This document shows positions 1-16,354 of a DNA stretch of 41,563 bases, piece after piece. Each line of letters begins with the position of its first letter. Position 1 is the stretch's first letter. The notes under the pieces are model-generated. The model made no database searches, was not told the DNA's origin, and saw only the letters and a list, made by a program, of their open reading frames with translations. The stretch lies in IMG/VR virus record IMGVR_UViG_3300031823_000015, positions 1 to 41,563 of that record. One strand, 5' to 3'. The translations under genes and the position numbers were made by a program. Origin of the DNA: a virus.

Positions 1-160
1 GCACCTCGGGATCGGCCAACGCCGCCTTGCGGGCGGCCGACATGCGGGCGCGCACCTCGGGATCGGCCAACGCCGCCTTGCTGGCGGCCGATATGCGGGC
101 GCGCACCTCGGGATCGGCCCACGCCGCCTTGCTGGCGGCCGATATGCGGGCGCGCACCTC
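1..160. repeat. 51-bp tandem direct repeats (coding)
   Basis: Copies begin at 1, 52, 103 and 154 (the last is partial), each starting GCACCTCGGGATCGGCC with a few substitutions. The period of 51 bp is exactly 17 codons of the minus-strand gene, so the array is an in-frame protein repeat and not a CRISPR. Such arrays readily gain or lose units by slippage. Confidence 0.9.
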
Positions 161-187
161 GGCCGAGTGCTTATAGGTCCGGCTCAC
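1..187 (-). CDS. Repeat protein of 17-residue units (partial, runs off the left edge)
   Basis: The minus-strand frame starts at a GTG (187-185) that overlaps the TGA of the exonuclease gene in a GTGA, the usual coupling in this operon. After a short head (SRTYKHS) the protein is built from near-identical 17-residue units of the type AAWADPEVRARISAASK. Units of this kind occur in phage proteins and beside HNH/homing endonucleases as DNA-binding NUMOD-like repeats. The function is not recognised, and a DNA-binding role is inference only. The gene continues beyond base 1, so the repeat number and any C-terminal domain are unknown. Confidence 0.7.
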   Translation of the reverse strand, partial: MSRTYKHSAEVRARISAASKAAWADPEVRARISAASKAALADPEVRARMSAARKAALADPEV

Positions 188-885
188 GCCATTTCTCCCG
201 GCAGCAGCGGCCCGAGATCGGCGCCATCGGCGAGGCCGTCGACGGCGGTGGCGAGCCTCCGGCGCTCGGCGAAGAGGCCGTGCCGCCGCGCGCGCTCCAA
301 AATTTCGTCGCGCATGTCGAGAAAGTCGGCGAGCGCCTGGCGCAGCATCTTTTGCTGCTCGTCGTCGCGGAAAGTGTGCGCCAGCACCGGAGGCATCGAG
401 GGGTGATACGAATAGCGCACGACGAAATCGAACTCGCCGACGAAGATCTGCCCTTGCGCCTGCGGCAAGTAATCAGCGCCGAACCCGTCGATCATGTATT
501 GCAGATGCGTCCACGGGGCCGGGCATTTCAGTTCCAGCGCCGCAGGCTTCCCGACAATGAGGCGGTCGGGGGTGGCGCCGATCCGCCCGTCGTCGGTCGT
601 CAGAAAGCCTACCCCGGCCGTCGCGACCTCTTGTTCGAACTCATACATGCGCAGGGCCGCGGGCTCGAGCTCCTGGCCGCGCTCCATCCACTCGATACCC
701 TCGATCGACTCGGTGACCTGGTTGAGCAGCAATTCGGCGGCGAGCCGGAAGGCGTAGCCGCGCGCCTGCTTCGAGAGCTGCCATTTCGCCGGCGTCACAA
801 TCCGGTGAAATTGCGAGGCGGTCGGGATGCCTAAACGAGCGCGGAGCCATGCCGCGCTTCCCTGTTCGCAATCGATGATCTTCAC
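184..885 (-). CDS. YqaJ-type viral exonuclease (lambda-exonuclease family)
   Basis: A 233-aa protein of the YqaJ/lambda exonuclease fold, which resects double-stranded DNA ends from 5' to 3' so that an annealing protein can load. The PD-(D/E)XK core is visible: GATPDRLI with Asp near residue 107, LELKCP with Glu near 118 and Lys near 120, and an upstream acidic motif ERGQELEP near 69-76. The GTG at 885 is chosen because GGAGG lies 7 nt upstream. The open frame extends to 1200 only as a shadow of the preceding gene. Its partner, the ERF-like protein, is two genes upstream, giving a complete exonuclease-annealase pair. It is coupled to the next gene by a GTGA overlap. Confidence 0.88.
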   Translation of the reverse strand: MKIIDCEQGSAAWLRARLGIPTASQFHRIVTPAKWQLSKQARGYAFRLAAELLLNQVTESIEGIEWMERGQELEPAALRMYEFEQEVATAGVGFLTTDDGRIGATPDRLIVGKPAALELKCPAPWTHLQYMIDGFGADYLPQAQGQIFVGEFDFVVRYSYHPSMPPVLAHTFRDDEQQKMLRQALADFLDMRDEILERARRHGLFAERRRLATAVDGLADGADLGPLLPGEMA

Positions 886-908
886 GGCCGCGCCTCCGTG
901 CAACGCAT

Positions 909-1235
909 TCAAATCCCCCATCCGCTTGAGGACGAGCAGCCGCCGGCGAGCGAGGCCGGCCCGGCCAGGCGCGCCGGCCCGTAGCGGCGCCGCGGCACGT
1001 CGTCGGCAAAGGGCTTGGTAGCCGCCATCTCGGCCGGCCATTCGCCGGCCGGGGCCGCGAGCCGGGGTGCTGTGTGGTTGGCGGCGACCTTGCTGCGCAG
1101 CTCGGTTATGCAGCGCTTGGCGCCGCAGGTCCGACGGTTGAAGAACGCCTTTGGGCTCTCGCCCTCCCCGCGTTGCAGCACCGTACGGCAGCATGCGCAT
1201 CTGCGCACGGCGTCGGCGCTCACGGGCCGGCTCAC
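909..1235 (-). CDS. Small Cys-rich protein between recombination genes
   Basis: A 108-aa protein starting at a GTG that overlaps the TGA of the ERF gene (GTGA). It has an early cysteine cluster, CACCRT, followed about 20 residues later by CGAKRC, which suggests a zinc-binding knuckle. The C-terminal half is low-complexity and ends in Ser/Gly. I do not recognise a family. Position between the annealing protein and the exonuclease suggests an accessory to recombination or DNA binding, but this is inferred from context only. Confidence 0.65.
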   Translation of the reverse strand: MSRPVSADAVRRCACCRTVLQRGEGESPKAFFNRRTCGAKRCITELRSKVAANHTAPRLAAPAGEWPAEMAATKPFADDVPRRRYGPARLAGPASLAGGCSSSSGWGI

Positions 1236-2002
1236 GACTGCCCCTCCCGCCTGGCCTTGCGCGCCATCAGCAGGTTGATCGCCACCGGGTAGGCGGCCTG
1301 CTGAATGTCGGGCAGCGCCTCGACATTCAGAGTGCGGCAGAAATCGTCGAGATTGACCGCCAGTTCGCGCATCAGGTCGGACAATTCCTTGACCTGCTCG
1401 GCGCCGATGTACTCGGCGCCGCCGCTTACGCCGTCGTCGTCCTCGCCCTCGAAGACCAGGTTGAGAACGTCCGAGCCCGCATAGCGCTTGCAATAGGACC
1501 GCGCCGAGCCCGAGCCCTGAATAGCGTTCTTGCCGCCCGAGGTATCGATCGGCAGGGGGCCGAAAGAAGAGCTGCGGCTGTGGCCGGCCTCGTGCAGCAG
1601 GATCGCGGTTTCGACAATCCGGCCGTCTGCACTCGGCGAGCTCTCAAAGATCAGCGCGAAGCCCTCGCTTTGCAGGAGCGGGCGGATCGCGCGGTCGATG
1701 TCCTCCCACCGCGCATATTTGATCCGCGCGCCTTTGCCCTTGCGATCGGAGTATTCGATGACGCCGTTTTTCTTGATGCGCGGCAACTTGCCGGCGAGCC
1801 GCACGTAAGCGGCGTTAAACAACACCCGCGCCTGGTCGACCTCCAATTCGCGCCGCATCTTTAACAGCGCCTCCATCTTGGCGACGTCGACCGCAGGGTC
1901 GGTCGCCGCCCGCGCGATCAACGCCAGCATCGTCGTCGGCGTGACGCGCTCCTCGGCGGTCGCGACCTCGCGCCCGGCTTCGATTAAATCAATCTCTGCC
2001 AT
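1232..2002 (-). CDS. ERF-family single-strand annealing protein
   Basis: A 256-aa protein with the features of ERF-superfamily annealing proteins (as in phage P22 Erf). These include a helical start, a central block around residues 75-110 (KNGVIEYSDRKGK, then the ARWEDIDRAIRP stretch), and FALIFES leading to a strand-rich section with HEAGHSRSS. The later GSARSYCKRYA motif matches the conserved T/S-YxxRY region of the family. It binds single-stranded DNA and promotes annealing, probably on ends made by the downstream exonuclease. The start is the ATG at 2002, which overlaps the end of the preceding small gene by 14 bp. Family recall is from conserved motifs, with no search run. Confidence 0.88.
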   Translation of the reverse strand: MAEIDLIEAGREVATAEERVTPTTMLALIARAATDPAVDVAKMEALLKMRRELEVDQARVLFNAAYVRLAGKLPRIKKNGVIEYSDRKGKGARIKYARWEDIDRAIRPLLQSEGFALIFESSPSADGRIVETAILLHEAGHSRSSSFGPLPIDTSGGKNAIQGSGSARSYCKRYAGSDVLNLVFEGEDDDGVSGGAEYIGAEQVKELSDLMRELAVNLDDFCRTLNVEALPDIQQAAYPVAINLLMARKARREGQS

Positions 2003-2902: not shown

Positions 2903-3204
2903 CGGTGCGTCTCCGGCACCGGCTCGATCATCAGCCGATAGGTCTTTCCCGTGCCAAGAAGCTCGAAGACGAGCGTATGCCGGCCGCTCGCGACGTAATC
3001 GGTCGGGACCGATATATCGGCGCGGCGGGCGAACCGCAGCCCCTCGACCTCGAACACGCCCGCGCGCCGGATCGCGGCGGCAAAGGCGTCGGCGTAGCTG
3101 GTGATCCCGGCCAGTCGCCGCTGGTAGGCCTCGCGATCGCGCTGGCGCGCTTCGGGCGTGCCGTAGAGTGCGGCTTCCGCCGGCGACAGCCGCAGGTCGC
3201 TCAC
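2899..3204 (-). CDS. Hypothetical early protein
   Basis: A 101-aa protein starting at a GTG within a GTGA overlap (SDLRLSPAEAALYGTPEARQ). A helical first half is followed by beta-rich sequence (VFEVEGLRFARRADISVP). No catalytic motif or family is recognised. It is the second gene of the leftward early operon. Confidence 0.6.
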   Translation of the reverse strand: MSDLRLSPAEAALYGTPEARQRDREAYQRRLAGITSYADAFAAAIRRAGVFEVEGLRFARRADISVPTDYVASGRHTLVFELLGTGKTYRLMIEPVPETHR

Positions 3205-3530
3205 GACGCCACCTCGTGGCGCAACAGCGTTTCGACCCGCGCCGAGAGGAGCGCCATCGTCTGGGAGGCGCCGGCGAGGCCGCCGATCTCGGCGGCGACC
3301 GCTTGCGCCAAGGCGGGCTCGCCGGCGAGCCGCAACGCCGCGGCCGCCTGGTCCAAGACCTGGTTGCGCAGATACCCGATGCGGGGCTCCTCGCTCGCGG
3401 CATAGAGCCGGGCCGCCGCCGTCGTCAGGTGCCACTCGCGGGTGTCGGGGAGCGCGCGTCTCAACGCCGGCAGCACCGCCGGCGCCGCATCGCTCTCAAC
3501 CTCGGCCGCTGTCGGTTTTTTCGATGCCAT
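3201..3530 (-). CDS. First gene of the leftward early operon, hypothetical
   Basis: A 109-aa helical, Ala/Glu-rich protein starting at the ATG at 3530, preceded by GGGGGAGAGTGCG, a good ribosome site. An in-frame upstream extension to 3614 exists but crosses the -10 hexamer and the operator, so it is not used. It lies about 35 nt downstream of the predicted transcription start and is therefore the first gene expressed from the repressor-controlled promoter. It has no recognised domain. Its position matches where phages place early takeover or anti-repressor-type functions, which is context only. Confidence 0.65.
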   Translation of the reverse strand: MASKKPTAAEVESDAAPAVLPALRRALPDTREWHLTTAAARLYAASEEPRIGYLRNQVLDQAAAALRLAGEPALAQAVAAEIGGLAGASQTMALLSARVETLLRHEVAS

Positions 3531-3570: not shown

Positions 3571-3598
3571 ATTATGCGGACTATTTTCCGCAGGTCAA
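3571..3598 (-). promoter_or_regulatory. Leftward early promoter (PL-like)
   Basis: On the minus strand TTGACC (3598-3593) is followed by 16 bp and then CATAAT (3576-3571), each 5/6 to the sigma70 consensus. The operator TGCGGA-N6-TCCGCA occupies the spacer exactly, so a bound repressor would block polymerase. Transcription would start near 3564 and read the whole early operon. Confidence 0.75.
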
Positions 3599-3623
3599 TA
3601 TATTTTGCGGACATTTATCCGCA
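3575..3623. promoter_or_regulatory. Two 18-bp repressor operators (OL-like)
   Basis: Operator 1 (3575-3592) and operator 2 (3606-3623) both have the form TGCGGA-N6-TCCGCA with perfect half-sites. They are 31 bp apart, about three helical turns, which would allow cooperative binding on one face. The same sequence occurs three more times beside the CI-like gene, linking this promoter to that repressor. Confidence 0.8.
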
Positions 3624-3755
3624 TTGGAATTGCGTCCGGTTTCAGATGGCGATCTTCCGGCGATAGGCACGACGCGTGAGGAAGTTAGCGAGGAGATCAA
3701 GTCGGCCCTCGACGACACGCCAAGCAGCTGCCCGCAGTGCCAAAGGGCCGGATAA
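3624..3755 (+). CDS. Possible 43-aa protein just after the operators
   Basis: An open frame from TTG at 3624, the first start-like codon after operator 2, runs to a TAA that overlaps the next ATG (TAATG). The peptide is acidic in the middle (TREEVSEEIKSALDD) and ends CPQCQ. No ribosome site is visible. Coding-like composition and the stop/start overlap argue for a real gene, while the TTG start and missing Shine-Dalgarno argue against. Low confidence. Confidence 0.35.
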   Translation: MELRPVSDGDLPAIGTTREEVSEEIKSALDDTPSSCPQCQRAG

Positions 3756-3985
3756 TGCCCCGCGGACCCCGAGGCGAGAAGCGCCCCGCCGACGTGATTG
3801 GCAACGCCGTCAAGGTCATGCGGATCGCGACCGGCGAGGAATCGGACGATATCGATCCTGCCAAATCAGCGGCGGCAGAGCTGGGCGCGCGCGGTGGTAA
3901 GGCGCGGGCCGCGAAGATGACCCCCGAGCGGCGCGCCGAAATTGCTCGAACTGCCGCAGCAAAACGATGGAACAAAGAGACTTGA
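3755..3985 (+). CDS. Small basic protein of a family common in Bradyrhizobium relatives
   Basis: A 76-aa protein starting MPRGPRGEKRPADVIGNAV, with a C-terminal Lys/Arg/Ala region (GARGGKARAAKMTPERRAEI) resembling a nucleic-acid-binding tail. I recall near-identical N-termini in many rhizobial genomes, often multicopy, with no settled function. The ATG at 3755 is chosen over an in-frame GTG at 3737 because it makes a TAATG overlap with the preceding frame. Role unknown. Confidence 0.7.
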   Translation: MPRGPRGEKRPADVIGNAVKVMRIATGEESDDIDPAKSAAAELGARGGKARAAKMTPERRAEIARTAAAKRWNKET

Positions 3986-3996
3986 TCTGAGATCAA
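3982..3996. promoter_or_regulatory. 15-bp perfect palindrome upstream of the toxin-antitoxin-like pair
   Basis: TTGATCT-G-AGATCAA overlaps the stop codon of the preceding gene and lies 45 bp before the first gene of the pair. A palindrome here is where an antitoxin with a helix-turn-helix would repress its own operon. Operator role is inferred. Confidence 0.45.
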
Positions 3997-4040
3997 CAAC
4001 CCGGTAGATTGCTCCCTGCCATTGTCTTGGAGGGGCGGGA

Positions 4041-4385
4041 ATGCCCAAGAAAGGCGTCAGGAAGCAGGTTCAGCGGTTCCCGCACGAGGAGACGTGGCTG
4101 AAAGAATTTGTCGGATTTCACGGTACCGACCAAGTGACAGAGTACTCGAAAGATGATCTTGGGGGCGTATCGTTGACCCGAATTGTGGAAGCGATAGTGT
4201 GCGGCGCAGTAGTATGGGCCGATAAGTCAGACGGACCAGGGGTAGATTGCATCGTCGAACATTACGCGGACGAGGGGGATTGCGTTCGTGCCTTTCTCCA
4301 TTTTGTAAGCAACGAAGAGAAATTGACGATCTCTGCGGCGGAGAGAATTGAGGAGAGCGGGCATGAGCCAAATCGCGCGGCATGA
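4041..4385 (+). CDS. Toxin-like protein (DUF4258-like) of a two-gene module
   Basis: A 114-aa protein with a ribosome site GGAGGGGCGGGA before its ATG. The second half has alternating strands (AIVCGAVVWADKSD, then VDCIVEHYADEGD, then VRAFLHFVSN), the layout of small DUF4258/MqsR-like toxins. It overlaps a helix-turn-helix gene by 23 bp, as in toxin-first modules. GC content is visibly lower than in flanking genes, suggesting separate acquisition. Assignment rests on layout plus partner; the catalytic residues are not evident, so the toxin call is moderate. Confidence 0.5.
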   Translation: MPKKGVRKQVQRFPHEETWLKEFVGFHGTDQVTEYSKDDLGGVSLTRIVEAIVCGAVVWADKSDGPGVDCIVEHYADEGDCVRAFLHFVSNEEKLTISAAERIEESGHEPNRAA

Positions 4386-5004
4386 CTTTGAGGCCAGTGG
4401 GCCACCGACGACGACATCGTACTACGAGGCTACGGAGGATCTTGGAACTCCCTTCAAGGTCTTCCTTGCTGGCGGCGTGGTATCGAAACGCGATCCGGCC
4501 ACAGGAAAAGAAAAGACCAGCATCGCTGACTTGCCGGGACTAATCGCTACGGTTGTTCGGTCGCGGGTGCTGCATTCGCGTAAGCTGTCGGGCGCGGACC
4601 TGCGCTACATTCGGTCGGCGCTGTGCATGAAAGCGAAGGTTCTGGCTGCCGCAGCCGATATGACGGCGGAAAACTACAGCCGGTGCGAAGCTGGTCGCAA
4701 GCCAATGTCCTCCACGACTGAGAAAGTGTATCGGTCGTTTGTGTTCCTGATCACCTTCGCAAGAGACAAGGGCGTTCAGGACACAATCAAGCAACAGCAG
4801 GCCAATAGCCCGGTGCCTCCGGATGAGGCCCAAAAGGCATTGGCAGGCTTTCAGAAACTGTTCCTGGAGATGAAGATCAGCCCGATTTTCGATCCGGCAG
4901 AACAGTTAGAGTTCACCTTCACCCGCGGACGCCGCCCTAAGGCTGCGCCGTGCGGGGGTGACGATGGCGAATGGAAGAGCGACCTAGACCAAATCGCAGC
5001 CTGA
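4363..5004 (+). CDS. Helix-turn-helix antitoxin-like regulator (MqsA-type C-terminal fold)
   Basis: A 213-aa protein. The N-terminal part (YYEATEDLGTPFKVFLAGGV) and the middle (SIADLPGLIATVV) match the pattern of alphaproteobacterial antitoxins, in which a YTESGLDNV-like segment precedes an XRE helix-turn-helix. The helix-turn-helix is around residues 80-120 (LSGADLRYIRSALCM, then AENYSRCEAG). The ATG at 4363 has GGAGAG upstream; the frame opens earlier at 4348, but that start lacks a site. It likely neutralises the preceding protein and represses the operon through the upstream palindrome. A terminator follows. Confidence 0.6.
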   Translation: MSQIARHDFEASGPPTTTSYYEATEDLGTPFKVFLAGGVVSKRDPATGKEKTSIADLPGLIATVVRSRVLHSRKLSGADLRYIRSALCMKAKVLAAAADMTAENYSRCEAGRKPMSSTTEKVYRSFVFLITFARDKGVQDTIKQQQANSPVPPDEAQKALAGFQKLFLEMKISPIFDPAEQLEFTFTRGRRPKAAPCGGDDGEWKSDLDQIAA

Positions 5005-5013
5005 GACCCCATC

Positions 5014-5048
5014 AACCCCGCGCCCGGCGCTCGGTCGCGGGGTTTTTT
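5014..5048 (+). terminator. Rho-independent terminator after the toxin-antitoxin-like pair
   Basis: A 9-bp stem AACCCCGCG / CGCGGGGTT with a 13-nt loop is followed by TTTTTT. It isolates this two-gene unit from what follows. Confidence 0.85.
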
Positions 5049-5062
5049 GTATGATGCGCGCC

Positions 5063-5107
5063 ATGAACAAGCTGCCCCTTACCAAGCGCGCCCAAATCCT
5101 TAGATGA
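5063..5107 (+). pseudogene. N-terminal stub of an IS1-family transposase
   Basis: ATG then 14 codons encode MNKLPLTKRAQILR before TGA. This matches my memory of the N-terminus of IS1-family transposases common in Bradyrhizobium, which then continue with a helix-turn-helix. Here the similarity ends abruptly where the oppositely oriented small gene (5100-5246) ends. It is probably the remains of an insertion later deleted. No search was run. Confidence 0.5.
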
Positions 5108-5246
5108 TAATTTTTTGCACCGGCTTAGGCGTCATGACATCGCCTGCGCGCCCTAGCGCAAGCGCCACTCGAATGACGATCGCGACTTGTGTTGTCGGCG
5201 GCGAGGCGGCGAGTGGTGGGATTGCCGCCGCCGCGCGCTCCATCAT
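5100..5246 (-). CDS. Small protein, 3' end probably altered by the IS scar
   Basis: A 48-aa protein starting at an ATG that overlaps the stop of the immunity-like gene (ATGA). The first part is Ala/Pro-rich (ERAAAAIPPLAASPPTT), followed by a hydrophobic stretch (QVAIVIRVALALG). The last residues (KPVQKIII) are encoded by the AT-rich junction next to the transposase stub, so the natural C-terminus may be missing. Function unknown. Confidence 0.4.
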   Translation of the reverse strand: MMERAAAAIPPLAASPPTTQVAIVIRVALALGRAGDVMTPKPVQKIII

Positions 5247-5668
5247 GGGTTCGCCCAGCCGGCGGTGAGATCGCGGCGGCAGAAACGGCATATCGTCGCC
5301 GCCGGAAGGATCGGCTCGGCGCAGTAGGGGCAGGGTTGCCGCCACGGCTTGTCCGCGGGTTCGGCTTCCGGCCGCGGCGCCCCCGGATCGGCAAGGGCCC
5401 AGGCCAAAGCCCCGATCCAGCCGATCAAGGTCCAGCCAGCGAGCAGGTTGACGGCAAAGATTGCCTGCCGGCTCGGGTGACGGCGGCGCCGGGCGACGAT
5501 CGCCGGGGCGAAATAGGCCGCGAGCACGAGCGCGAGGATCACGGCCGCAACGAGGGAAGCCGAGCTGTCGGCGCTGCCGGGCGCCGGTGCGCGATATTGC
5601 TGATCGATCGCCCATATCACCAAGAGCGATGCAAAAAGCACAAACAGCCCTTGCAGGACCCGCCTCAT
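5243..5668 (-). CDS. Superinfection-immunity-like membrane protein with C-terminal zinc ribbon
   Basis: A 141-aa protein with three membrane segments: about residues 6-24, 41-60 and 74-96. The last pair carries the pattern of the T4-Imm-like superinfection immunity family (AAYFAPAIVARRRRH, then AVNLLAGWTLIGWIGALAWAL). A zinc ribbon follows, CPYC...CRFC, near residues 117-135. The ATG at 5668 has GGGGGAGG 7-8 nt upstream; an in-frame GTG at 5704 overlaps the repressor gene. It is transcribed with the repressor, so it would be made in lysogens and could block DNA entry of related phages. Role inferred from family and context. Confidence 0.72.
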   Translation of the reverse strand: MRRVLQGLFVLFASLLVIWAIDQQYRAPAPGSADSSASLVAAVILALVLAAYFAPAIVARRRRHPSRQAIFAVNLLAGWTLIGWIGALAWALADPGAPRPEAEPADKPWRQPCPYCAEPILPAATICRFCRRDLTAGWANP

Positions 5669-5693
5669 TGGGCGCCTCCCCCTTGCTGCTCGG

Positions 5694-6470
5694 TCATTTG
5701 TCACGGCGCCCGCTACGGCGCGGCGTTGTGGCCTTCTCGATCACGCCGAGGATCTCGGCGGGGTCTTCGGGGCGCGGGCGGTAATCCACCTTCTTTGATC
5801 TTGGTCGGTAGACGCGGCCGCGTTCGGCGAAACCCTCGCTCTCGGCAACGACAGACTGGATCTCTATCGCTGACGGCAGGGAGAGCCCCGTCGTCGCAAT
5901 AAGGTCGCCGGTTGCCGACAGGCCAAGCGTGCCGATCAGCACTTCTATCGTCTCATCGGTCTCGGGCAGCCGGTGACGCACAAGCACGCGGTCGCCGAGC
6001 GACAGGGCGGCATCGGCTAACGCGCGCACGATGACGACGGCGCCGGGCTTGTAGCCAAAGGCCGCAGCACTCTTGTCGAGAATCCGCGCGCCAAAGCATT
6101 GAGCCGGGCTGCCGCCGAAGACAGGGGCTGGCGTGGCTTTTCCCGTGACCTCGAACTTGTCGGGCGTCTGTTCGGTCATCGCGAGCGAGACGAGATATCG
6201 GATCGGGATCTCGGCGCGGTTCGCTGGGGGCGGCGCGGTGTCGTCGGCACCGATGGCGAGCAGCGTCGCCAGCGGCACCTGCAGCACCGGCGCCAGCTCG
6301 CGCAGGGTTTCGAGCTTTGCCGGGTTGCCGCGCGTGAGAGTGCGGATTTTGTCTCGGCTGCGGCCGTCCGACGCCTTGAGCGACGCCGCGTTCGCGCTGA
6401 GGCCGAGCTCCCGCAATCTCTCTTCGATAAAAGCGAGCTGCGCCGCGGCGAGGTCGGGGCCTTTTAACAT
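5694..6470 (-). CDS. CI-like phage repressor
   Basis: A 258-aa repressor. An N-terminal helix-turn-helix domain lies around residues 15-75 (LSANAASLKASDGRSRDKIR), and a C-terminal S24/LexA-like fold around 115-215 (PAQCFGARILDKSAAAFGYK, then GDRVLVRHRLPETDE). The usual self-cleavage Ser-Met and the later Lys are not clear: KSAAAF stands where the serine motif is expected and EVLIGTL where the lysine strand is expected. Induction by RecA cleavage is therefore doubtful. Its ATG at 6470 abuts operator 3 with no ribosome site, so the maintenance transcript may be leaderless as in lambda cI. It is predicted to bind the five TGCGGA-N6-TCCGCA sites. Confidence 0.85.
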   Translation of the reverse strand: MLKGPDLAAAQLAFIEERLRELGLSANAASLKASDGRSRDKIRTLTRGNPAKLETLRELAPVLQVPLATLLAIGADDTAPPPANRAEIPIRYLVSLAMTEQTPDKFEVTGKATPAPVFGGSPAQCFGARILDKSAAAFGYKPGAVVIVRALADAALSLGDRVLVRHRLPETDETIEVLIGTLGLSATGDLIATTGLSLPSAIEIQSVVAESEGFAERGRVYRPRSKKVDYRPRPEDPAEILGVIEKATTPRRSGRRDK

Positions 6471-6546
6471 GCGGACGATTATCCGCGCGCTGCGCGGTCG
6501 TCGTATGCGGATAGAAATCCGTTGACGATGCGGACTAATGTCCGCA
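6470..6546. promoter_or_regulatory. Three 18-bp repressor operators between CI and Cro (OR-like)
   Basis: Sites are 6470-6487 (TGCGGA-N6-TCCGCG), 6506-6523 (TGCGGA-N6-TCCGTT) and 6529-6546 (TGCGGA-N6-TCCGCA, perfect). The perfect copy fills the spacer of the rightward promoter, the middle copy overlaps its -35, and the third overlaps the -10 of the leftward maintenance promoter. This order reproduces lambda OR1-OR2-OR3. Confidence 0.85.
6471..6507 (-). promoter_or_regulatory. Repressor maintenance promoter (PRM-like)
   Basis: On the minus strand GATAAT (6483-6478, 5/6 to consensus) lies 7 nt before the repressor ATG. Transcription would begin at or next to the A of the start codon. The -35 position (near ATACGA) is poor, as expected for a promoter activated by repressor bound at the adjacent middle operator. 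Confidence 0.6.
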
Positions 6547-6550
6547 TGCT
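6522..6550 (+). promoter_or_regulatory. Rightward early promoter (PR-like)
   Basis: TTGACG (6522-6527) and, 17 bp on, CATGCT (6545-6550). The -10 is weak, but the architecture matches the leftward early promoter, in which the operator also fills the spacer. The predicted start is at 6557, the A of the Cro-like ATG, so this message may also be leaderless. Confidence 0.6.
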
Positions 6551-6556
6551 TGGGGC

Positions 6557-6814
6557 ATGTTGGATTCGAGATCGAAACTCTTGCTGCTCGTGCGGCGCTA
6601 TTGCGAGGCGACCGGGCGGTCGCCGGCGCGGGTGGCCACTCTGATCCACGATCAGGGAGCTTTTTTCAAAAATCTGGAAAGCGGCGGCAGCTGCACGATC
6701 GACACTTTCGACAAGGCGGTGCGCTGGTTTTCCGCGCATTGGCCCGCCGACCTCCCGTGGCCCGAAGGGGTCGAGCGGCTGGCGGCGGCCGTCGCCGAGG
6801 ACGCGCCGCGATGA
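6557..6814 (+). CDS. Cro-like small DNA-binding protein
   Basis: An 85-aa protein encoded divergently from the CI-like gene directly after the operators, the Cro position. The sequence pattern (LLLVRRYCEATGRSPARVAT, then DQGAFFKNLESGGS) matches small helix-turn-helix regulators found in this place in rhizobial prophages. A weak GGGG lies close to the ATG. It probably binds the same operators and turns down the repressor during lytic growth. The ATGA overlap with the next gene indicates a rightward early operon. Confidence 0.72.
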   Translation: MLDSRSKLLLLVRRYCEATGRSPARVATLIHDQGAFFKNLESGGSCTIDTFDKAVRWFSAHWPADLPWPEGVERLAAAVAEDAPR

Positions 6815-7062
6815 TGGCGAGCCCGCAAGAGAGCGCGCTGCGGCTGGACTGCCTGCGGCTGGCGGTGGAATCGGGGCGCTATTACCTCCCCGATGATCTG
6901 GCGTCCGCACCGGGCGAGATCGTGGCGCGGGCGCAGGCGTTTTACGATTTTGCAGTCAGGGGTGCTGCAACGGCCCCGGTGGCCGGCAAGGCCCCCGAGA
7001 CAGCAGCTGCCGGAAATCCTTTCCACACCAGTTTCAGGGCGTGGAACCCTCGAAGTGATTGA
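6811..7062 (+). CDS. Small early protein whose C-terminus runs into an inverted repeat
   Basis: An 83-aa protein with start coupled by ATGA to the Cro-like gene. The N-terminal 45 residues (ESALRLDCLRLAVESGR, then a helix ending AQAFYDFAV) resemble short helical phage proteins. The final residues (FHTSFRAWNPRSD) are encoded by the left copy of a 29-bp inverted repeat, so the original ending may have been replaced when that element arrived. Function unknown. Confidence 0.6.
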   Translation: MMASPQESALRLDCLRLAVESGRYYLPDDLASAPGEIVARAQAFYDFAVRGAATAPVAGKAPETAAAGNPFHTSFRAWNPRSD

Positions 7063-7373
7063 CGATCCCGCACGAGGCATGGGGCCGTTCGACCCGGCGG
7101 CGAGGGATCGTGTCGAGGCGCCGTGGCGCCAAAGTCATGCCGGCCGCTCTCGCAAAGCGGCCGGCAGCAAAGCTCGGGCGAGCGTTGGGGGAAGAAGTGG
7201 GCGGTTGTCCACTTGTCGAAGGTGGGCGCGCGGGCACCGTGCTCGAGCGGGCTCTGGCCGATGGGGGGAACTTCGGCCATGGCATCGCCCGCGCGCCACA
7301 TCGCCGTTCTTGCTTTGGCTTCGTCAACTCCTTTGCTGCGCTGTGGTTCCACGCCCTGAAACTGGCGTGGAAA
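7020..7373. mobile_element. 354-bp segment bounded by 29-bp inverted repeats (MITE-like)
   Basis: Left copy 7020-7048 and right copy 7345-7373 are inverted and match at 28 of 29 positions. Each copy is also a dyad: TTCCACGCC and GGCGTGGAA arms around AGTTTCAG (the left has one change). Similarity extends outward with two gaps (CGGAAATCC versus CGGAATC). Between them lies a perfect 10-bp hairpin (7139-7165). No transposase or convincing gene is inside, and no clear target duplication is seen. This covers most of the gene-free stretch 7063-7442. A non-autonomous mobile element is likely; a replication or regulatory site is an alternative. Confidence 0.55.
7139..7165. repeat. Perfect 10-bp hairpin inside the inverted-repeat segment
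   Basis: GCCGGCCGCT and AGCGGCCGGC flank a 7-nt loop (CTCGCAA). There is no T-run, so it is not a standard terminator. Confidence 0.7.
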
Positions 7374-7442
7374 GATTCCGTGCGCGCAGAATTTTCGTCC
7401 GCGAGCGCGGAATCCCCGCTGCCGCCGTCAGCGGAGCCTGCC

Positions 7443-10938: not shown

Positions 10939-11455
10939 GATCATGCGCGTGCTCGACGACCTCGGCGAAATCTTTGGTGGTCAATTGGGCGAGCGGGCCT
11001 GCGAGCTCTACGTCAGGGCCCTGGCCGACCTGACGACGGTTGCGCTGACGGATGCGGTCGACCGGCTGATCCGCGACCACGAACGCTTTTTTCCGACCCC
11101 GGCCGAGATCCGCGCCGCCGCGGGGTTTGTCGGCGACGATGCCGCTTCCGGTGCACTGCCGCTGTTTCCCCCCGACCCGCGCAGCCTCGACGAGATAGCC
11201 GACACCCGTCGGCGGCTGGCGCCGCTGTGGGGCGAGGTGCGGCGCGTGTTCAACGGGGGCGAGCTGCGGCCGTTCGCCGAGGTTTTGGCCGATCTCGATG
11301 CCGGCAGGCTCGGCACGGCGTCCTTGCCGGCACCGGCCGCGCCGCGCCGCCCGTCGCCGTGCTATGTCGCCGACGGGCCGGACGACGACCCGTGGCCACC
11401 GCTGGGCGACGCTCTCGGGCCGATGTCCGCTATCGCAGAGGAGGAGAGGTCATGA
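10922..11455 (+). CDS. Helicase-loader-like protein (G39P-type N-terminus)
   Basis: A 177-aa protein. The first about 75 residues (EIMRVLDDLGEIFGGQLGER, then LTDAVDRLIRDHERFFPTPA followed by EIRAAA) follow the pattern of the phage G39P helicase-loader domain, where helices end in a FFPTxAEIR motif. The rest is Pro/Ala/Asp-rich. It overlaps the replication gene by 17 bp, and no DnaB-like gene is in the window, so it likely loads the host helicase. Family call moderate. Confidence 0.6.
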   Translation: MASLPEIMRVLDDLGEIFGGQLGERACELYVRALADLTTVALTDAVDRLIRDHERFFPTPAEIRAAAGFVGDDAASGALPLFPPDPRSLDEIADTRRRLAPLWGEVRRVFNGGELRPFAEVLADLDAGRLGTASLPAPAAPRRPSPCYVADGPDDDPWPPLGDALGPMSAIAEEERS

Positions 11456-12252
11456 ATTTCGAGGATCTGGTCGACCGGGTGACGCGGCGTCTGGCGTGGC
11501 CGGAAGCAAAAGCGACGGTGCGCGAGGTGTTGCGCGCCGAGTTCGCGATTATCGGCGAGGCGTTGGCGACCGAGAGCGAGGTGGTCCTGCCCGAGCTCGG
11601 GCGGTTCAAGGTCGAGCATGTCGGCTCGCGCACCGGGCGGCATCCGCGCACCGGCGAGCATCAGCGCGATGTAGATACGTGGCTGCGGCGACAGCAGCAG
11701 GTCCGCGGTCGCCGGCTCCAACCACCAATGCGCCGGGCGCTGACGCGGGCCGAGCAGATTGAGCCTGGCATAAGTGACGGCCTCCAACTTAACCCCATAG
11801 CGCACCGCAAAATCCGCCGTCGTCATTGCCTCCAAATCGTCCATCCGCCGCAACCACCAGCGCTCCCCGTCCTCATACCAGTTGTGGCCCAACGCTCGGC
11901 GCAGCCGCTTGACAGTTGTCCGGCTGAGCGGCAGGTCGATGAGGTCGGGGGCGCGGCGAAAACGCTCCAGGTAGGCGACCAGCTCGGCAGTCAGGATCAC
12001 CGCGGCGCCGCCCGGCCCCGACATTGCGAGCGGCCGGCCCAAATACAGCGCAAAATCGTGCGCGGTCAGGCGGGCGGCGTCTACCTGCCAGATCGCCCGC
12101 CAGGCATCCTCTATGTGGCTGCCGATCCGCCATGCGACCGAGCGCGGCGTCGGGCCGGCGGCCAGCCGATCCCACTCGTCGTCAGGCAGGTCGTCCGGGT
12201 CAATATGCCGGACCGGGAGCTGGCCCGGCGGCAGTCGCGAGGGGCTCGGCAT
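11362..12252 (-). CDS. Last gene of the leftward accessory operon, 3' end lost
   Basis: From the ATG at 12252 about 190 residues are protein-like (DDLPDDEWDRLAAGPTPRS, then DFALYLGRPLAMSGPG, LSRTTVKRLRRALGHNW and ERWWLRRMDDLEAMTTADF). Below about 11664 the frame reads antisense through the HU-like gene and runs on to 11362, so the last 100 codons are not native. The central helix-rich part with SRTTVKRLRRALG could bind DNA. Family not recognised. It faces the HU-like gene tail to tail across what looks like a deletion junction. Confidence 0.5.
   Translation of the reverse strand: MPSPSRLPPGQLPVRHIDPDDLPDDEWDRLAAGPTPRSVAWRIGSHIEDAWRAIWQVDAARLTAHDFALYLGRPLAMSGPGGAAVILTAELVAYLERFRRAPDLIDLPLSRTTVKRLRRALGHNWYEDGERWWLRRMDDLEAMTTADFAVRYGVKLEAVTYARLNLLGPRQRPAHWWLEPATADLLLSPQPRIYIALMLAGARMPPGARADMLDLEPPELGQDHLALGRQRLADNRELGAQHLAHRRFCFRPRQTPRHPVDQILEIHDLSSSAIADIGPRASPSGGHGSSSGPSAT
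11452..11664 (+). pseudogene. HU/IHF-like DNA-binding protein lacking its C-terminus
   Basis: The first 69 residues follow the HU fold: helices (FEDLVDRVTRRLAWPEAKAT), then LPELGRFKVEHVGSR and the DNA-binding arm motif TGRHPRTGE. The expected last 20 or so residues (IPAxxxxxFKPGK type) are absent. After RTGE the frame continues through sequence that is antisense to the next gene and stays open to 13173, so the native stop is gone. The ATG at 11452 overlaps the upstream TGA and has GGAGAGG. It is probably inactive or an abnormal fusion. Confidence 0.6.
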
Positions 12253-12280: not shown

Positions 12281-12493
12281 CTAGTGCGGCGCCGATGCTG
12301 TGTCGAGCTCGCGCGCAAGGTCGCGGGCGGCGCGCTGCACCAAGAGCGGCACCGGGCACGGCGCCTTGCTGGTGCGGTCGACGCCCGCCTCGTAATCATG
12401 CAGGCGGCCGGTCGACAAGCCGAGGGCGGCGGCGAATTTCGCTTGCGTCAGCCCAAAGCGTTTGCGCAGCTCGCGCAGATCGAGGCCGGTCAT
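12281..12493 (-). CDS. XRE-family helix-turn-helix regulator
   Basis: A 70-aa protein that is essentially one XRE helix-turn-helix (DLRELRKRFGLTQAKFAAAL followed by GLSTGRLHDYEAG) and a short tail. The ATG at 12493 overlaps the TGA of the preceding gene. A small repressor inside a short operon is a natural candidate to bind the TGCCGTTACGGCA palindrome in the operon promoter (14446-14458). Together with its neighbour it could also be an antitoxin-type pair. Both are inference. Confidence 0.75.
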   Translation of the reverse strand: MTGLDLRELRKRFGLTQAKFAAALGLSTGRLHDYEAGVDRTSKAPCPVPLLVQRAARDLARELDTASAPH

Positions 12494-13062
12494 TTCGCCC
12501 GCCGGACGATCCGGCACCCGGCCAGCAGCGGCTCGCCATCGGCGCCATGGCCGATTTCGCGACCGGCGACGATATAGAGCGCGGCGCCGAGGCCGGCGAA
12601 ATTGACCTGTCCCACCCATTCGGCGGTGCCGCGCGGAAGGGGGCGGGCCTCGCCCGTCGCCAGCATCTCGCCGTGGTAGACCGACACCCCGGCCTCGAAT
12701 GTGCCGTCGGCGTGATTGCGCGAGCGGCCGCCGGCCGGCAGGCGGCCATATCGGACATAGCACGGGGTGGCGCTGCGCCATTTCTCCTCGGCCGTCGCCC
12801 GCTGCGCCGCGAGGGCGGCAGCGGTCTCGATGTGCTCGACGGTCAGCAGCTCGGCGCCGTAGCCGTCGCGCGCGCACCCGACGACGGCCCAGCCCTCGGC
12901 CAAGAGCGCGACTTCGGCGGCGGCGGGGTCGCCAAACCGGCGGCCGTTGACTTCGGCCGCCAGCGAGGACAGCAACCAATATCCGCCGCGGCCGTAGCTG
13001 CCGCCGCGGTGCCCGATGGTGGCGCGCGGCTCCAGGCCGCCGAGGATGTTGGTGTAGATCAT
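12490..13062 (-). CDS. Hypothetical protein coupled to the XRE regulator
   Basis: A 190-aa protein of mixed helix and strand (ATIGHRGGSYGRGGYWLLSS, later WVGQVNFAGLGAALYIVAG, ending CRIVRRAK). No catalytic signature or family is recognised. The ATG at 13062 begins MIYTNILGG, and its stop overlaps the regulator's ATG. Because it is paired with a small helix-turn-helix protein, a toxin or effector role is possible but unsupported. Confidence 0.6.
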   Translation of the reverse strand: MIYTNILGGLEPRATIGHRGGSYGRGGYWLLSSLAAEVNGRRFGDPAAAEVALLAEGWAVVGCARDGYGAELLTVEHIETAAALAAQRATAEEKWRSATPCYVRYGRLPAGGRSRNHADGTFEAGVSVYHGEMLATGEARPLPRGTAEWVGQVNFAGLGAALYIVAGREIGHGADGEPLLAGCRIVRRAK

Positions 13063-15035: not shown

Positions 15036-15572
15036 GTGAGCAAAAAAACTCGCAGCGCCCATGGCGCTCGCCTGGTCTCCCCCCTACCAGGCGAGCGTTT
15101 TACGCACGGACCGGTCGAACTCGTCCAAAACCCGATCGCCGATGACGCGGGGGTGATCTCGCGCCCCTACCGCGCTATCAACATCCTCGCCGCGATGGAG
15201 CGCCGCGGTGCGATCACCGCCCGGATGCGCACCGCCGGCGACGACTTCAACGAGCTTTTTCGGCGCGCCGCGCTCGACCCGCTGCGCGCCGCTCCGTTTG
15301 TGCGCCAGAGTCGCGGCCGGACCGAGCCGAGCCTGGCGCTCGAAGTGGCGCGCGAGCGGGTGTGGCGCGCCATCACCGCCGTCGGAGGGATCGGCTCGCC
15401 CGGCGGGTCCTGCCTGTGGCATGTCGTCGGCTGGGAAACCTCGCTGAAGGAATGGGCGCTGGGCCAGGGCTGGAACGGCCGCCGCGTCAGCCAGGAAGCG
15501 GCCTCGGGCATCCTGATCGCCGCGCTGGGCGCGCTGCATCAGCATTTTCAGGCCGTCGCCCGCGCCGCCTGA
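15036..15572 (+). CDS. DUF6456-like conserved phage protein
   Basis: A 178-aa protein whose end (LWHVVGWETSLKEWALGQGW, then AASGILIAALGALHQHF) matches a conserved domain of alphaproteobacterial phage and host proteins that I recall as DUF6456. It starts at GTG 15036, with no strong ribosome site. A TATGAT hexamer lies at about 14980 as a possible -10. It may be a regulator, since the family often sits beside late control genes. Confidence 0.62.
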   Translation: MSKKTRSAHGARLVSPLPGERFTHGPVELVQNPIADDAGVISRPYRAINILAAMERRGAITARMRTAGDDFNELFRRAALDPLRAAPFVRQSRGRTEPSLALEVARERVWRAITAVGGIGSPGGSCLWHVVGWETSLKEWALGQGWNGRRVSQEAASGILIAALGALHQHFQAVARAA

Positions 15573-15634
15573 AACCCTCACACCACCGACAAACCGACGT
15601 TTTAGTCTGTGACGCGCTCGGAACGGCGTTACAG

Positions 15635-16354
15635 GTGCGCAAGAAGCTTGTCGGCGCCCCGGTTTCGGGGCCGCGCTTTGTCGCCTATTTCCGGGTTTCG
15701 ACCGATAAGCAGGGCGCCTCGGGGCTGGGGCTTGAAGCGCAACGCGAGGCTGTCTCCCGCCATGTAGGTGCTGCGGGCGGGCTCGTCGTCGCCGAGTTCA
15801 CCGAGGTCGAGACCGGCACCCGAAAACGCCACCGGCCGCAGATGATGGCGGCGCTGGCGGCATGCCGGCTGAGGCGCGCCGTCTTGGTCATCGCCAAGCT
15901 CGATCGGCTGGCGCGCAACGTCCATTTCGTCTCGGGGCTAATGGAAGCCGGCGTCGAGTTCGTCGCCTGCGACAACCCGCATGCGACGCGCGTTCTGGTC
16001 CACATCATGGCGGCCTTTGCCGAGTACGAGGCTGAGGCGATCTCGCGCCGCACGAAGGAAGCCTTGGCCGCCGCCAGGGCGCGCGGCGTCAGGCTCGGCA
16101 ACCCGCATTTGAAGCCCGGCGACCGTTTCGGCCTGGCGCGTGCGGCGCGCCGTGCCCGTGCGGTGCGGGCGCAGGAGCGCGCCGCCGATGTCATGCACTT
16201 TGTCGCCGCCGCGCAAGCCGCGGGCTGCAAGAGCCTCGGCGAGATCGCGCGCGCTTTAACCGCGCGCGGCATCGACACGCCGGGCGGCGGCCATGAGTGG
16301 CGCTCCGAGCAGGTCAAGCGAGTCATTCAACGCGCGGGGGACGCGAACCGGTGA
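15635..16354 (+). CDS. Serine recombinase (resolvase/invertase family)
   Basis: A 239-aa small serine recombinase. The catalytic serine is in YFRVSTDKQ (near residue 22), followed by LEAQREAV, VLVIAKLDRLARN and AAFAEYEAEAISRRTKEAL. The C-terminal DNA-binding part has GCKSLGEIARALTARGIDTP. It is too short for a large serine integrase, so a resolvase, invertase or locus-specific role is more likely than phage integration, although some phages use short enzymes. The GTG at 15635 has only a weak site. Coupled by GTGA to the GcrA-like gene. Confidence 0.85.
   Translation: MRKKLVGAPVSGPRFVAYFRVSTDKQGASGLGLEAQREAVSRHVGAAGGLVVAEFTEVETGTRKRHRPQMMAALAACRLRRAVLVIAKLDRLARNVHFVSGLMEAGVEFVACDNPHATRVLVHIMAAFAEYEAEAISRRTKEALAAARARGVRLGNPHLKPGDRFGLARAARRARAVRAQERAADVMHFVAAAQAAGCKSLGEIARALTARGIDTPGGGHEWRSEQVKRVIQRAGDANR

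What the first reader, a model, noticed from the sequence alone, without database searches (positions are those of the whole stretch)
3575..6546. Five copies of an 18-bp operator reproduce the lambda OL/OR circuit around a distant CI-like repressor
TGCGGA-N6-TCCGCA occurs twice in the leftward early promoter (3575-3592, 3606-3623) and three times between the CI-like and Cro-like genes (6470-6487, 6506-6523, 6529-6546). I saw no other copy when reading the window. In both early promoters the perfect operator fills the -35/-10 spacer. The middle OR-like copy is the degenerate one (TCCGTT). Unlike lambda, a toxin-antitoxin-like unit and an immunity gene sit between the two operator clusters. This defines a specific DNA target for an otherwise unstudied repressor.
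Basis: partly seen in the sequence, partly recalled or inferred. Interest (0 to 1): 0.7.

Follow-up and report, generated by a model that had tools for sequence, protein, structure and literature searches.

The report
Phage switch with rewritable operator lock
This bacterial virus carries a lambda-like on/off switch whose five matching DNA landing sites are real, and the same layout with differently spelled sites occurs in many viruses of alpha-proteobacteria, where one amino acid of the repressor often predicts one letter of the site.

Summary
All five TGCGGA-N6-TCCGCA sites lie at the stated coordinates; their placement, more than their number, makes them credible. The two-plus-three plan recurs in related prophages: 12 of 20 listed viral contigs with a promoter-plus-operator pattern carry the linked Cro-like gene, and 11 of those 12 have left operator(s). 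More generally, the unannotated Cro-like family phrog_7669 sits beside three operators with nearly fixed spacing (about 35 + 23 bp): score >=65 in 42 of 79 upstream regions, some of them related, versus 0 of 700 control windows. The operator sequence varies: 21 distinct half-sites. Repressor residue 44 covaries with operator base -4 above all other columns. A rule noted beforehand predicted that base in 19 of 23 new loci; always guessing T gives 13. A Cro-like residue covaries with the same base, less robustly. I conclude: a CI/Cro-type switch, a new variant of a known kind, with two left and three right operators, probably leaderless repressor and cro messages, and a partly readable recognition code. 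No binding was measured. The toxin-antitoxin label is unsupported.

The parts
3575..3592 (.). OL inner operator, TGCGGACTATTTTCCGCA; fills the -35/-10 spacer of the leftward early promoter
3606..3623 (.). OL outer operator, TGCGGACATTTATCCGCA; upstream of the PL -35 box, dyad axes 31 bp apart
3571..3598 (-). PL promoter: -35 TTGACC (3598-3593), N16, -10 CATAAT (3576-3571)
   Evidence: same arrangement at OL of relatives
3201..3530 (-). first gene of the leftward early operon (109 aa, no family match)
1232..2002 (-). ERF single-strand annealing protein, leftward operon
   Evidence: PF04404 E 6.8e-12; phrog_155 E 2.4e-31
184..906 (-). YqaJ-type exonuclease, leftward operon
   Evidence: PF09588 E 1.3e-16
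4041..4385 (+).
4363..5004 (+). 213-aa protein with a weak HTH match, overlapping the previous gene
   Evidence: PF13560 E 0.005, below the gathering score; no PDB match
5243..5668 (-). superinfection-immunity protein, just downstream of the repressor on the same strand
   Evidence: PF14373 E 3.9e-17; phrog_1039 E 1.7e-19
5694..6470 (-). CI-like repressor (258 aa): 434/lambda-type HTH at residues 1-76, diverged C-terminal part
   Evidence: model and fold search; profile of the window repressor and 14 relatives matches 434 repressor, E 4.4e-9
6470..6487 (.). O1 (OR3-like) operator, over the first base of the repressor start codon and its predicted -10 (GATAAT 6483-6478, minus strand)
6506..6523 (.). 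O2 (OR2-like) operator; right half runs into the PR -35; axis 44.5 bp from the repressor ATG
6522..6550 (+). PR promoter: -35 TTGACG (6522-6527), N17, weak -10 CATGCT (6545-6550)
   Evidence: read from the sequence; not reported by the scan
6529..6546 (.). O3 (OR1-like) operator, in the PR spacer
6557..6814 (+). Cro-like protein (85 aa), phrog_7669; predicted HTH; ATG begins seven nt after the end of the predicted -10
   Evidence: phrog_7669 E 2.6e-25; model pLDDT 82.5; weak HTH fold matches

Best explanation
This is the immunity switch of a temperate phage. In the lysogen, dimers of the repressor (5694-6470, minus strand) bind O3 and O2 at PR and both OL sites at PL. This blocks the Cro-like/rightward operon and the leftward recombination operon. 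O2 lies about 44 bp upstream of the repressor start, where a bound dimer could activate the repressor's own promoter, as lambda CI does from OR2. O1 covers the repressor's -10 and reaches its start codon, so filling it would limit repressor synthesis. After induction the Cro-like protein reads the same sites and keeps the repressor off. The architecture is conserved while the operator sequence is rewritten from phage to phage. The recognition-helix residue aligned to repressor T44 (equivalent to 434 repressor Gln33) and the Cro-like residue aligned to Q33 covary with operator base -4, so both proteins seem to track the same site. Shown here: sites, gene layout, conserved geometry, covariation, out-of-sample prediction for the repressor (N and D classes). 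Inferred: binding, repression, activation from O2, leaderless messages, the Cro role.
For: Sites and promoters. Same 2+3 plan: 12 of 20 listed viral contigs have the Cro-like gene, and 11 of these 12 have one or two left operators. 7 of 20 listed genome contigs have the gene, all seven from alphaproteobacterial genera, 5 of the 7 with left operators. OL pairs also in phages with other operators: L001-L003, L005 and Rhizobium phage RR1-A; one left site in phiAX1. Geometry: score >=65 in 42 of 79 discovery and 21 of 31 new regions, 0 of 700 control windows; at >=61, 49, 23 and 7. O2 axis to repressor start 44-45 bp in 30 of 35 loci. Covariation: in 51 non-redundant repressors residue 44 vs base -4 has z 11.4, next column 3.6, of 82; Cro-like Q33 z 5.3, next 2.7, of 78 columns in 37 proteins. 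Pre-noted rule: 19 of 23 correct (N->T 12 of 13, D->G 7 of 8, G->C 0 of 2); always guessing T gives 13; N/D against T/G is 12-0 / 0-7. New repressors at most 53% identical to discovery ones outside the helix. Family profile matches 434 repressor.
Against: No binding or expression data. 30 of 79 discovery and 8 of 31 new regions fall below score 61; in phiAX1 the middle site is 34 bp from O3. No left operators found for L020/L044, L057, L004, L006, L013 and L014 in the flank held (1.7-9.3 kb). The right -10 is weak. Best Foldseek E for the Cro-like model is 0.45. In the discovery panel alone at 24 Cro clusters, Q33/-4 ranked only fourth (z 3.2; top I30/-6, 3.8). No new locus has A at -4, so K/T->A was not tested out of sample, and the Cro rule (D -> G or T) had little to discriminate there, as 21 of 23 bases are G or T. 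Four of 23 repressor predictions failed, one a 3/6 tie (L130). AmM-1 (N44, base mostly C) also breaks the rule; phage 16-3, outside the family, has N there with A at -4. The covarying Cro-like residue lies in the turn before helix 3 of the model. Shared ancestry can inflate covariation.
Confidence: 0.85

Rival explanations
1. The sites belong to the Cro-like protein (or another phage regulator) only; the repressor has different targets.
For: The Cro-like family is the constant gene beside the sites, while repressors beside the same TGCGGA sites differ widely in their C-terminal parts (S24 or short HTH-only).
Against: Repressor residue 44 covaries with base -4 more strongly than any Cro-like column. 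It falls on the position equivalent to 434 Gln33, and the out-of-sample test favours it.
Confidence: 0.06
2. The repeats are part of the promoter or a host-factor site rather than phage operators.
For: Two of the five overlap the PR/PL -35 to -10 region, and the -35 TTGAC is common to the relatives' promoters.
Against: The half-site differs between related phages (21 distinct half-sites) and tracks phage-encoded residues; O1 and the outer OL site lie outside the PR and PL core promoters.
Confidence: 0.03
3. The motif cluster is a chance clustering of GC-rich palindromes.
For: At <=2 mismatches the count (6) is not above shuffles.
Against: At <=1 mismatch 4 against 0.33 expected; recurrence in relatives at the same places.
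Confidence: 0.01
4. The covariation is inheritance of whole immunity cassettes, not a contact code.
For: Repressor, operators and Cro-like gene are linked and could move together; some loci are close relatives.
Against: Non-redundant sets at 40, 50 and 60% identity all give residue 44 as top repressor column (z 6.7, 11.4, 12.1; next 3.7, 3.6, 3.9). Among pairs <30% identical outside the helix, residue 44 is shared in 53% of same-base pairs (n=445) and 7.8% of different-base pairs (n=1279).
Confidence: 0.17

Closest known systems
Lambda/434 CI-Cro switch with OL and OR
   Same: Divergent repressor and Cro-like genes around three right operators. One operator in the PR spacer, one beside the -35 and upstream of the repressor promoter, one over the repressor promoter; a second cluster at the leftward early promoter of an operon with recombination genes; 434-type HTH (lambda side from general knowledge).
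   Different: Two left operators, not three; O1-O2 about 35 bp; Cro-like protein of an unannotated family; Cro-like message possibly also leaderless; no recognisable S24 protease in this repressor.
Rhizobium phage 16-3 immC (C repressor, OL1/OL2, OR1/OR2; annotated in NC_011103)
   Same: Alphaproteobacterial phage; operators beside the -35 of PL and Pr; two left operators; C-terminal part similar to an S24-type repressor of this family (L025).
   Different: Two right operators, 12-14 bp, of the ACAA-N4/6-TTGT kind (motif recalled; OR sequences read); the gene after Pr (p069) does not look like the Cro-like family by inspection; N at the residue-44 position with A at -4 (aligned by eye).
Immunity regions of Rhizobium phage RR1-A, Acetobacter phage phiAX1, Aurantimonas phage AmM-1, Rhizobium phage RHph_N3_2, Pelagibaca phage vB_PeaS-P1
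   Same: Carry the phrog_7669-like gene beside a divergent repressor or regulator with operator repeats.
   Different: Other half-sites (GCGTA, GCGGG, GCGGC, GCGGT, TCGGT). No operators are annotated in the record stretches read.
Mycobacteriophage stoperator system
   Same: Phage repressor with several sites.
   Different: There an asymmetric sequence and numerous sites spread over the genome (title and abstract start of PMC9283540, listing); here five symmetric sites at two promoters.

Membership tests
Lambda-type CI/Cro switch (works like) | Three operators between divergent repressor and cro, one inside the cro promoter | tested here: met
Lambda-type CI/Cro switch (works like) | Second operator cluster at a leftward early promoter | tested here: met
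   two sites; lambda has three (general knowledge)
Lambda-type CI/Cro switch (works like) | Repressor with lambda/434-type HTH | tested here: met
   profile of the window repressor and 14 relatives to 434 repressor E 4.4e-9, lambda repressor E 1.3e-6; model blocks 1-80 pLDDT 66-95; best Foldseek match 434 repressor 1pra, E 0.0075
Lambda-type CI/Cro switch (works like) | S24 self-cleaving C-terminal domain | tested here: inconclusive
   no Pfam S24 match for the window repressor; weak partial similarity to relatives' S24 region; relatives L025, L006, L018, L019, L020, L005 match PF00717, while L016, L032, L001, L057 do not
Lambda-type CI/Cro switch (works like) | Cooperative binding and OL-OR looping | not testable with these tools
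   needs binding or looping assays; OL-OR distance varies from about 0.8 to 7 kb in relatives
Lambda-type CI/Cro switch (works like) | Repressor activates its own promoter from the middle site | not testable with these tools
   only the spacing (44-45 bp to the start in 30 of 35 loci) is known
phrog_7669 (Cro-like protein) | Profile match over nearly the whole protein | tested here: met
   E 2.6e-25, residues 2-81 of 85
XRE/Cro-type HTH fold (Cro-like protein) | Significant fold match | tested here: inconclusive
   four helices, best Foldseek E 0.45, VIA Z up to 5.6
Phage 16-3 immunity family | Two right operators with ACAA half-sites | tested here: not met
   three right operators with GCGGA half-sites
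Type II toxin-antitoxin unit (4041-5004) | Match to known toxin or antitoxin families | tested here: inconclusive
   no match above threshold for the 114-aa protein, weak HTH for the partner; the PADLOC library was not run

The most novel reading that the evidence does not exclude
Alphaproteobacterial temperate phages share an immunity module with fixed five-operator geometry and an interchangeable operator sequence. Specificity is written in a short, shared recognition code: the residue at the 434-Gln33 position of the repressor, and a turn/helix-3 residue of an unnamed Cro family, jointly set operator base -4 (N to T, D to G, K/T to A). Operators and immunity groups of unstudied prophages could therefore be predicted from sequence.
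Probability: 0.62. Interest if true: 0.75.

Novelty: new variant of a known kind. Interest (0 to 1): 0.63.

Why it matters
A 2025 study of Sinorhizobium prophages found no operators identical to those of lambda or 16-3 and concluded that some of those prophages had partly or wholly lost their regulation (PMC12429752, passages seen). The geometry found here gives a way to look for operators without knowing their sequence. It also gives a testable set of 21 natural consensus half-sites, useful for predicting immunity groups and for protein-DNA recognition studies, and it suggests a function for phrog_7669. I did not test whether the phiLM21 prophages belong to this family.

Tried and rejected
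Close relatives of the window's repressor: none in the phage collection and none confirmed in viral contigs, so all comparison goes through the Cro-like gene and the operator. A diverse Cro-like alignment was too variable for a protein scan; I used the operator-promoter pattern instead. Both pattern scans list exactly 20 loci, probably a cap, so '12 of 20' and '7 of 20' are shares of those listed. The other 8 viral loci have no Cro-like hit and I treat them as chance; one, L027, has a second near match. The other 13 genome contigs have no Cro-like ORF downstream; 12 of them have no second site within one mismatch, L053 has one.

Foldseek E-values for the Cro-like model are weak. The pdb_via matches (Z up to 5.6) may be only a common helical arrangement and include unrelated folds; I draw no family from them. 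The full repressor model is poor beyond residue 76. A -5 rule for Cro-like residue 32 (S to T) was seen in the discovery GCGTA loci but is not clean, so I do not claim it. The rule G to C for repressor residue 44 failed 0 of 2 out of sample. In the first covariation run, at 24 Cro clusters, Q33 was not the top column. Phage Rivra gave no three-site fit (score 51); by eye its half-site fits D to G, but I do not count it. The one search test of L013 used a wrong half-site; repeated, it shows no left operators.

Thresholds and dropped rows: the score threshold 65 was chosen after seeing the shuffle maximum of 64; at 61 the controls give 7 of 700. Of 99 Cro-like hits, those with E >1e-9, locus L010 (the window again) and duplicates with identical upstream DNA were dropped before the 79 regions; close relatives remain among the 79. 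Seven loci (L096, L071, L072, L110, L078, L083, L081) and those >80% identical were dropped before the 35, where repressor starts were taken as an ATG 7-14 bases from the O1 axis if there was one. For one search, the 72 loci (49 + 23) with score >=61 were used. My notebook holds wrong statements, corrected here: 12 (not 13) of 20 viral contigs; N to T 12 of 13; L020 is a genuine miss for OL, not truncated.

Literature: nine searches of the held library showed no description of this operator family in their listings. Two papers on 16-3 that I tried are not held, so 'not in print' cannot be claimed.
Full report
Observation. The five copies of TGCGGA-N6-TCCGCA are present at 3575, 3606, 6470, 6506 and 6529 with 0, 0, 1, 2 and 0 mismatches in the twelve specified bases. 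At up to one mismatch there are 4 matches against 0.33 expected, and no shuffle of 100 reaches 4. At up to two mismatches there are 6 against 4.6 expected, so the middle copy is credible through its place, not its score. The window is a 41,563-base IMG/VR virus record.

Setting. The leftward strand carries an ERF annealing protein and a YqaJ exonuclease. The repressor gene ends at 5694, and on the same strand a superinfection-immunity gene follows (PF14373). The Cro-like gene at 6557 is phrog_7669, a family of unknown function, with no Pfam or NCBIfam match. A serine recombinase (15362-16354) suggests a temperate phage. The repressor has no close relative in the phage collection or, confirmed, in viral contigs. 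Its HTH domain is modelled well, and the profile of it and 14 relatives matches 434 repressor, lambda CI and P22 c2; the model's best Foldseek match is also 434 repressor, at E 0.0075. Its C-terminal part is diverged: no S24 match, only weak partial similarity to the relatives' S24 region.

Same operator elsewhere. A scan of viral contigs for TTGAC-N1-2-operator listed 20 loci. Twelve have a Cro-like gene downstream and a divergent repressor, and 11 of these 12 have one or two further operators 0.8-3.3 kb to the left, at a promoter of the form TTGAC-operator. L020 has none. In genome contigs 7 of 20 listed loci are of this kind, all seven from alphaproteobacterial genera (Rhizobium, Hoeflea, Sphingomonas, Azospirillum); 5 of the 7 show left operators, L044 and L057 do not.

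Different operators, same geometry. Relatives of the Cro-like gene found by homology use many other half-sites. I fitted three symmetric sites without fixing their sequence. Score >=65 was reached in 42 of 79 discovery regions and 21 of 31 new regions, against 0 of 700 real control windows and none of 474 shuffled regions (maximum 64); at >=61 the figures are 49, 23 and 7 of 700. Some of the 79 are close relatives. At >=65, O2-O3 is 22-24 bp in 62 of 63 and O1-O2 33-36 bp in 61 of 63. The O2 axis lies 44-45 bp from the repressor start in 30 of 35 loci. The right half of O2 runs into the -35, which explains the degenerate middle copy; phiAX1 is spaced differently. Pairs of left operators are also found in L001-L003, L005 and RR1-A, which have other half-sites, and one left site in phiAX1; none was found in the flanks held for L004, L006, L013 and L014. 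The family occurs in 29 of 385 genomes of the Azospirillum class, 3 of 82 of its order and 43 of 297 of the Rhizobium family at E <=0.001, and in none of 14 control genomes.

Recognition code. Across 51 repressors less than 50% identical outside the helix, the column of residue 44 stands out for base -4: z 11.4, next 3.6, 82 columns. In the Cro-like protein Q33 is the top column: z 5.3, next 2.7, 78 columns, 37 proteins. With the discovery panel alone the Cro-like signal was weaker (fourth at 24 clusters, top at 39). Residue 44 aligns with 434 repressor Gln33. In a published model of 933W repressor, Lys46, which by my counting from the first recognition-helix residue is the same position, contacts inner positions 4 and 5 (PMC3317979, passages). 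N with T and D with G would place Asn opposite adenine and Asp opposite cytosine, chemically ordinary pairs (general knowledge).

Out-of-sample test. I wrote the rule down before fetching 31 further loci. Of the 23 with score >=61, 19 were predicted correctly: N to T 12 of 13, D to G 7 of 8, G to C 0 of 2. The failures are L127, L126, L152 and L130, the last a 3/6 tie. Always guessing T would give 13 of 23. Among loci with N or D and T or G the split is 12-0 against 0-7, Fisher p 2e-5 if loci were independent, which they are not fully: 18 of the 23 remain below 60% identity, 14 of them correct. The repressors are at most 53% identical to the discovery set outside the helix. No new locus has A at -4, so K/T to A rests on the discovery panel (K 16 of 17, T 3 of 3). 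For the Cro-like protein, D went with G or T in 18 of 19 (the other is the tie), S with C as allowed, A with G against the rule, H and a gap lie outside it; but 21 of the 23 bases are G or T, so this part discriminates little. In the discovery panel D goes with G or T in 18 of 18 and the other residues mostly with A (26 of 31). Among named phages, read by eye, RHph_N3_2 and vB_PeaS-P1 fit both rules; AmM-1 fits the Cro-like rule but not the repressor rule.

Mechanism. The anatomy fits a CI/Cro switch: repression of PR (O3, O2) and PL (OL pair), possible self-activation from O2, self-limitation at O1, and a Cro-like competitor for the same sites. In the window the repressor's predicted -10 lies in O1, with seven bases between it and the ATG, and the Cro-like ATG follows its weak -10 after six bases, so both messages may lack leaders. 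A GGGG before the Cro-like ATG leaves room for ordinary initiation. None of these functions was measured.

Known systems. Phage 16-3 is the nearest studied case that I found. Its record annotates OL1, OL2, OR1, OR2 and the promoters. By my reading OR1 runs into a TTGACG in the same manner, although the record places the -35 five bases further on. It has two right operators, other half-sites and, by inspection, no Cro-like gene of this family. It has N at the residue-44 position with A at -4, so the code should not be carried outside the family.

Verdict. A real variant of a known kind of switch, seen in several alphaproteobacterial groups. Novelty lies in the conserved two-plus-three plan with rewritable operators, the unnamed Cro family, and the partly predictive code.

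Noticed in passing
window 7019-7048 and 7345-7374: 30-nt inverted repeat, 97% complementary, 296 nt apart, in the rightward region downstream of the Cro-like gene; no function known.
   Followed up: no
window 1-180: GC-rich tandem repeat of roughly 50-60 bp at the edge of the record (read by eye; no repeat finder run there).
   Followed up: no
window 12281-12979 (-) and 11362-12252 (-): A second XRE-type regulator (matches phrog_2104, phrog_8 and others) beside a phrog_12823 gene.
   Followed up: no
window 15362-16354 (+): Serine recombinase or invertase, possibly the integrase (phrog_125 / phrog_95).
   Followed up: no
L001 and L005 repressors: L001's repressor has two HTH stretches and no S24 match, while L005, with nearly the same operators, has an S24-type repressor; C-terminal parts seem to be exchanged.
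   Followed up: partly
L016, L032, L057 repressors: Short repressors (119-131 aa) beside the same TGCGGA operators, with no S24 match; they probably cannot be induced by self-cleavage.
   Followed up: partly
L013, L014 and L161 (phages vB_ThpS-P1, RS1, vB_PeaS-P1): The same Cro-like family sits beside the repressor in records with a transposase, integrase, mobile-element or ParB-like nuclease gene; that these are Mu-like and that the place is that of ner is recalled, not tested.
   Followed up: partly
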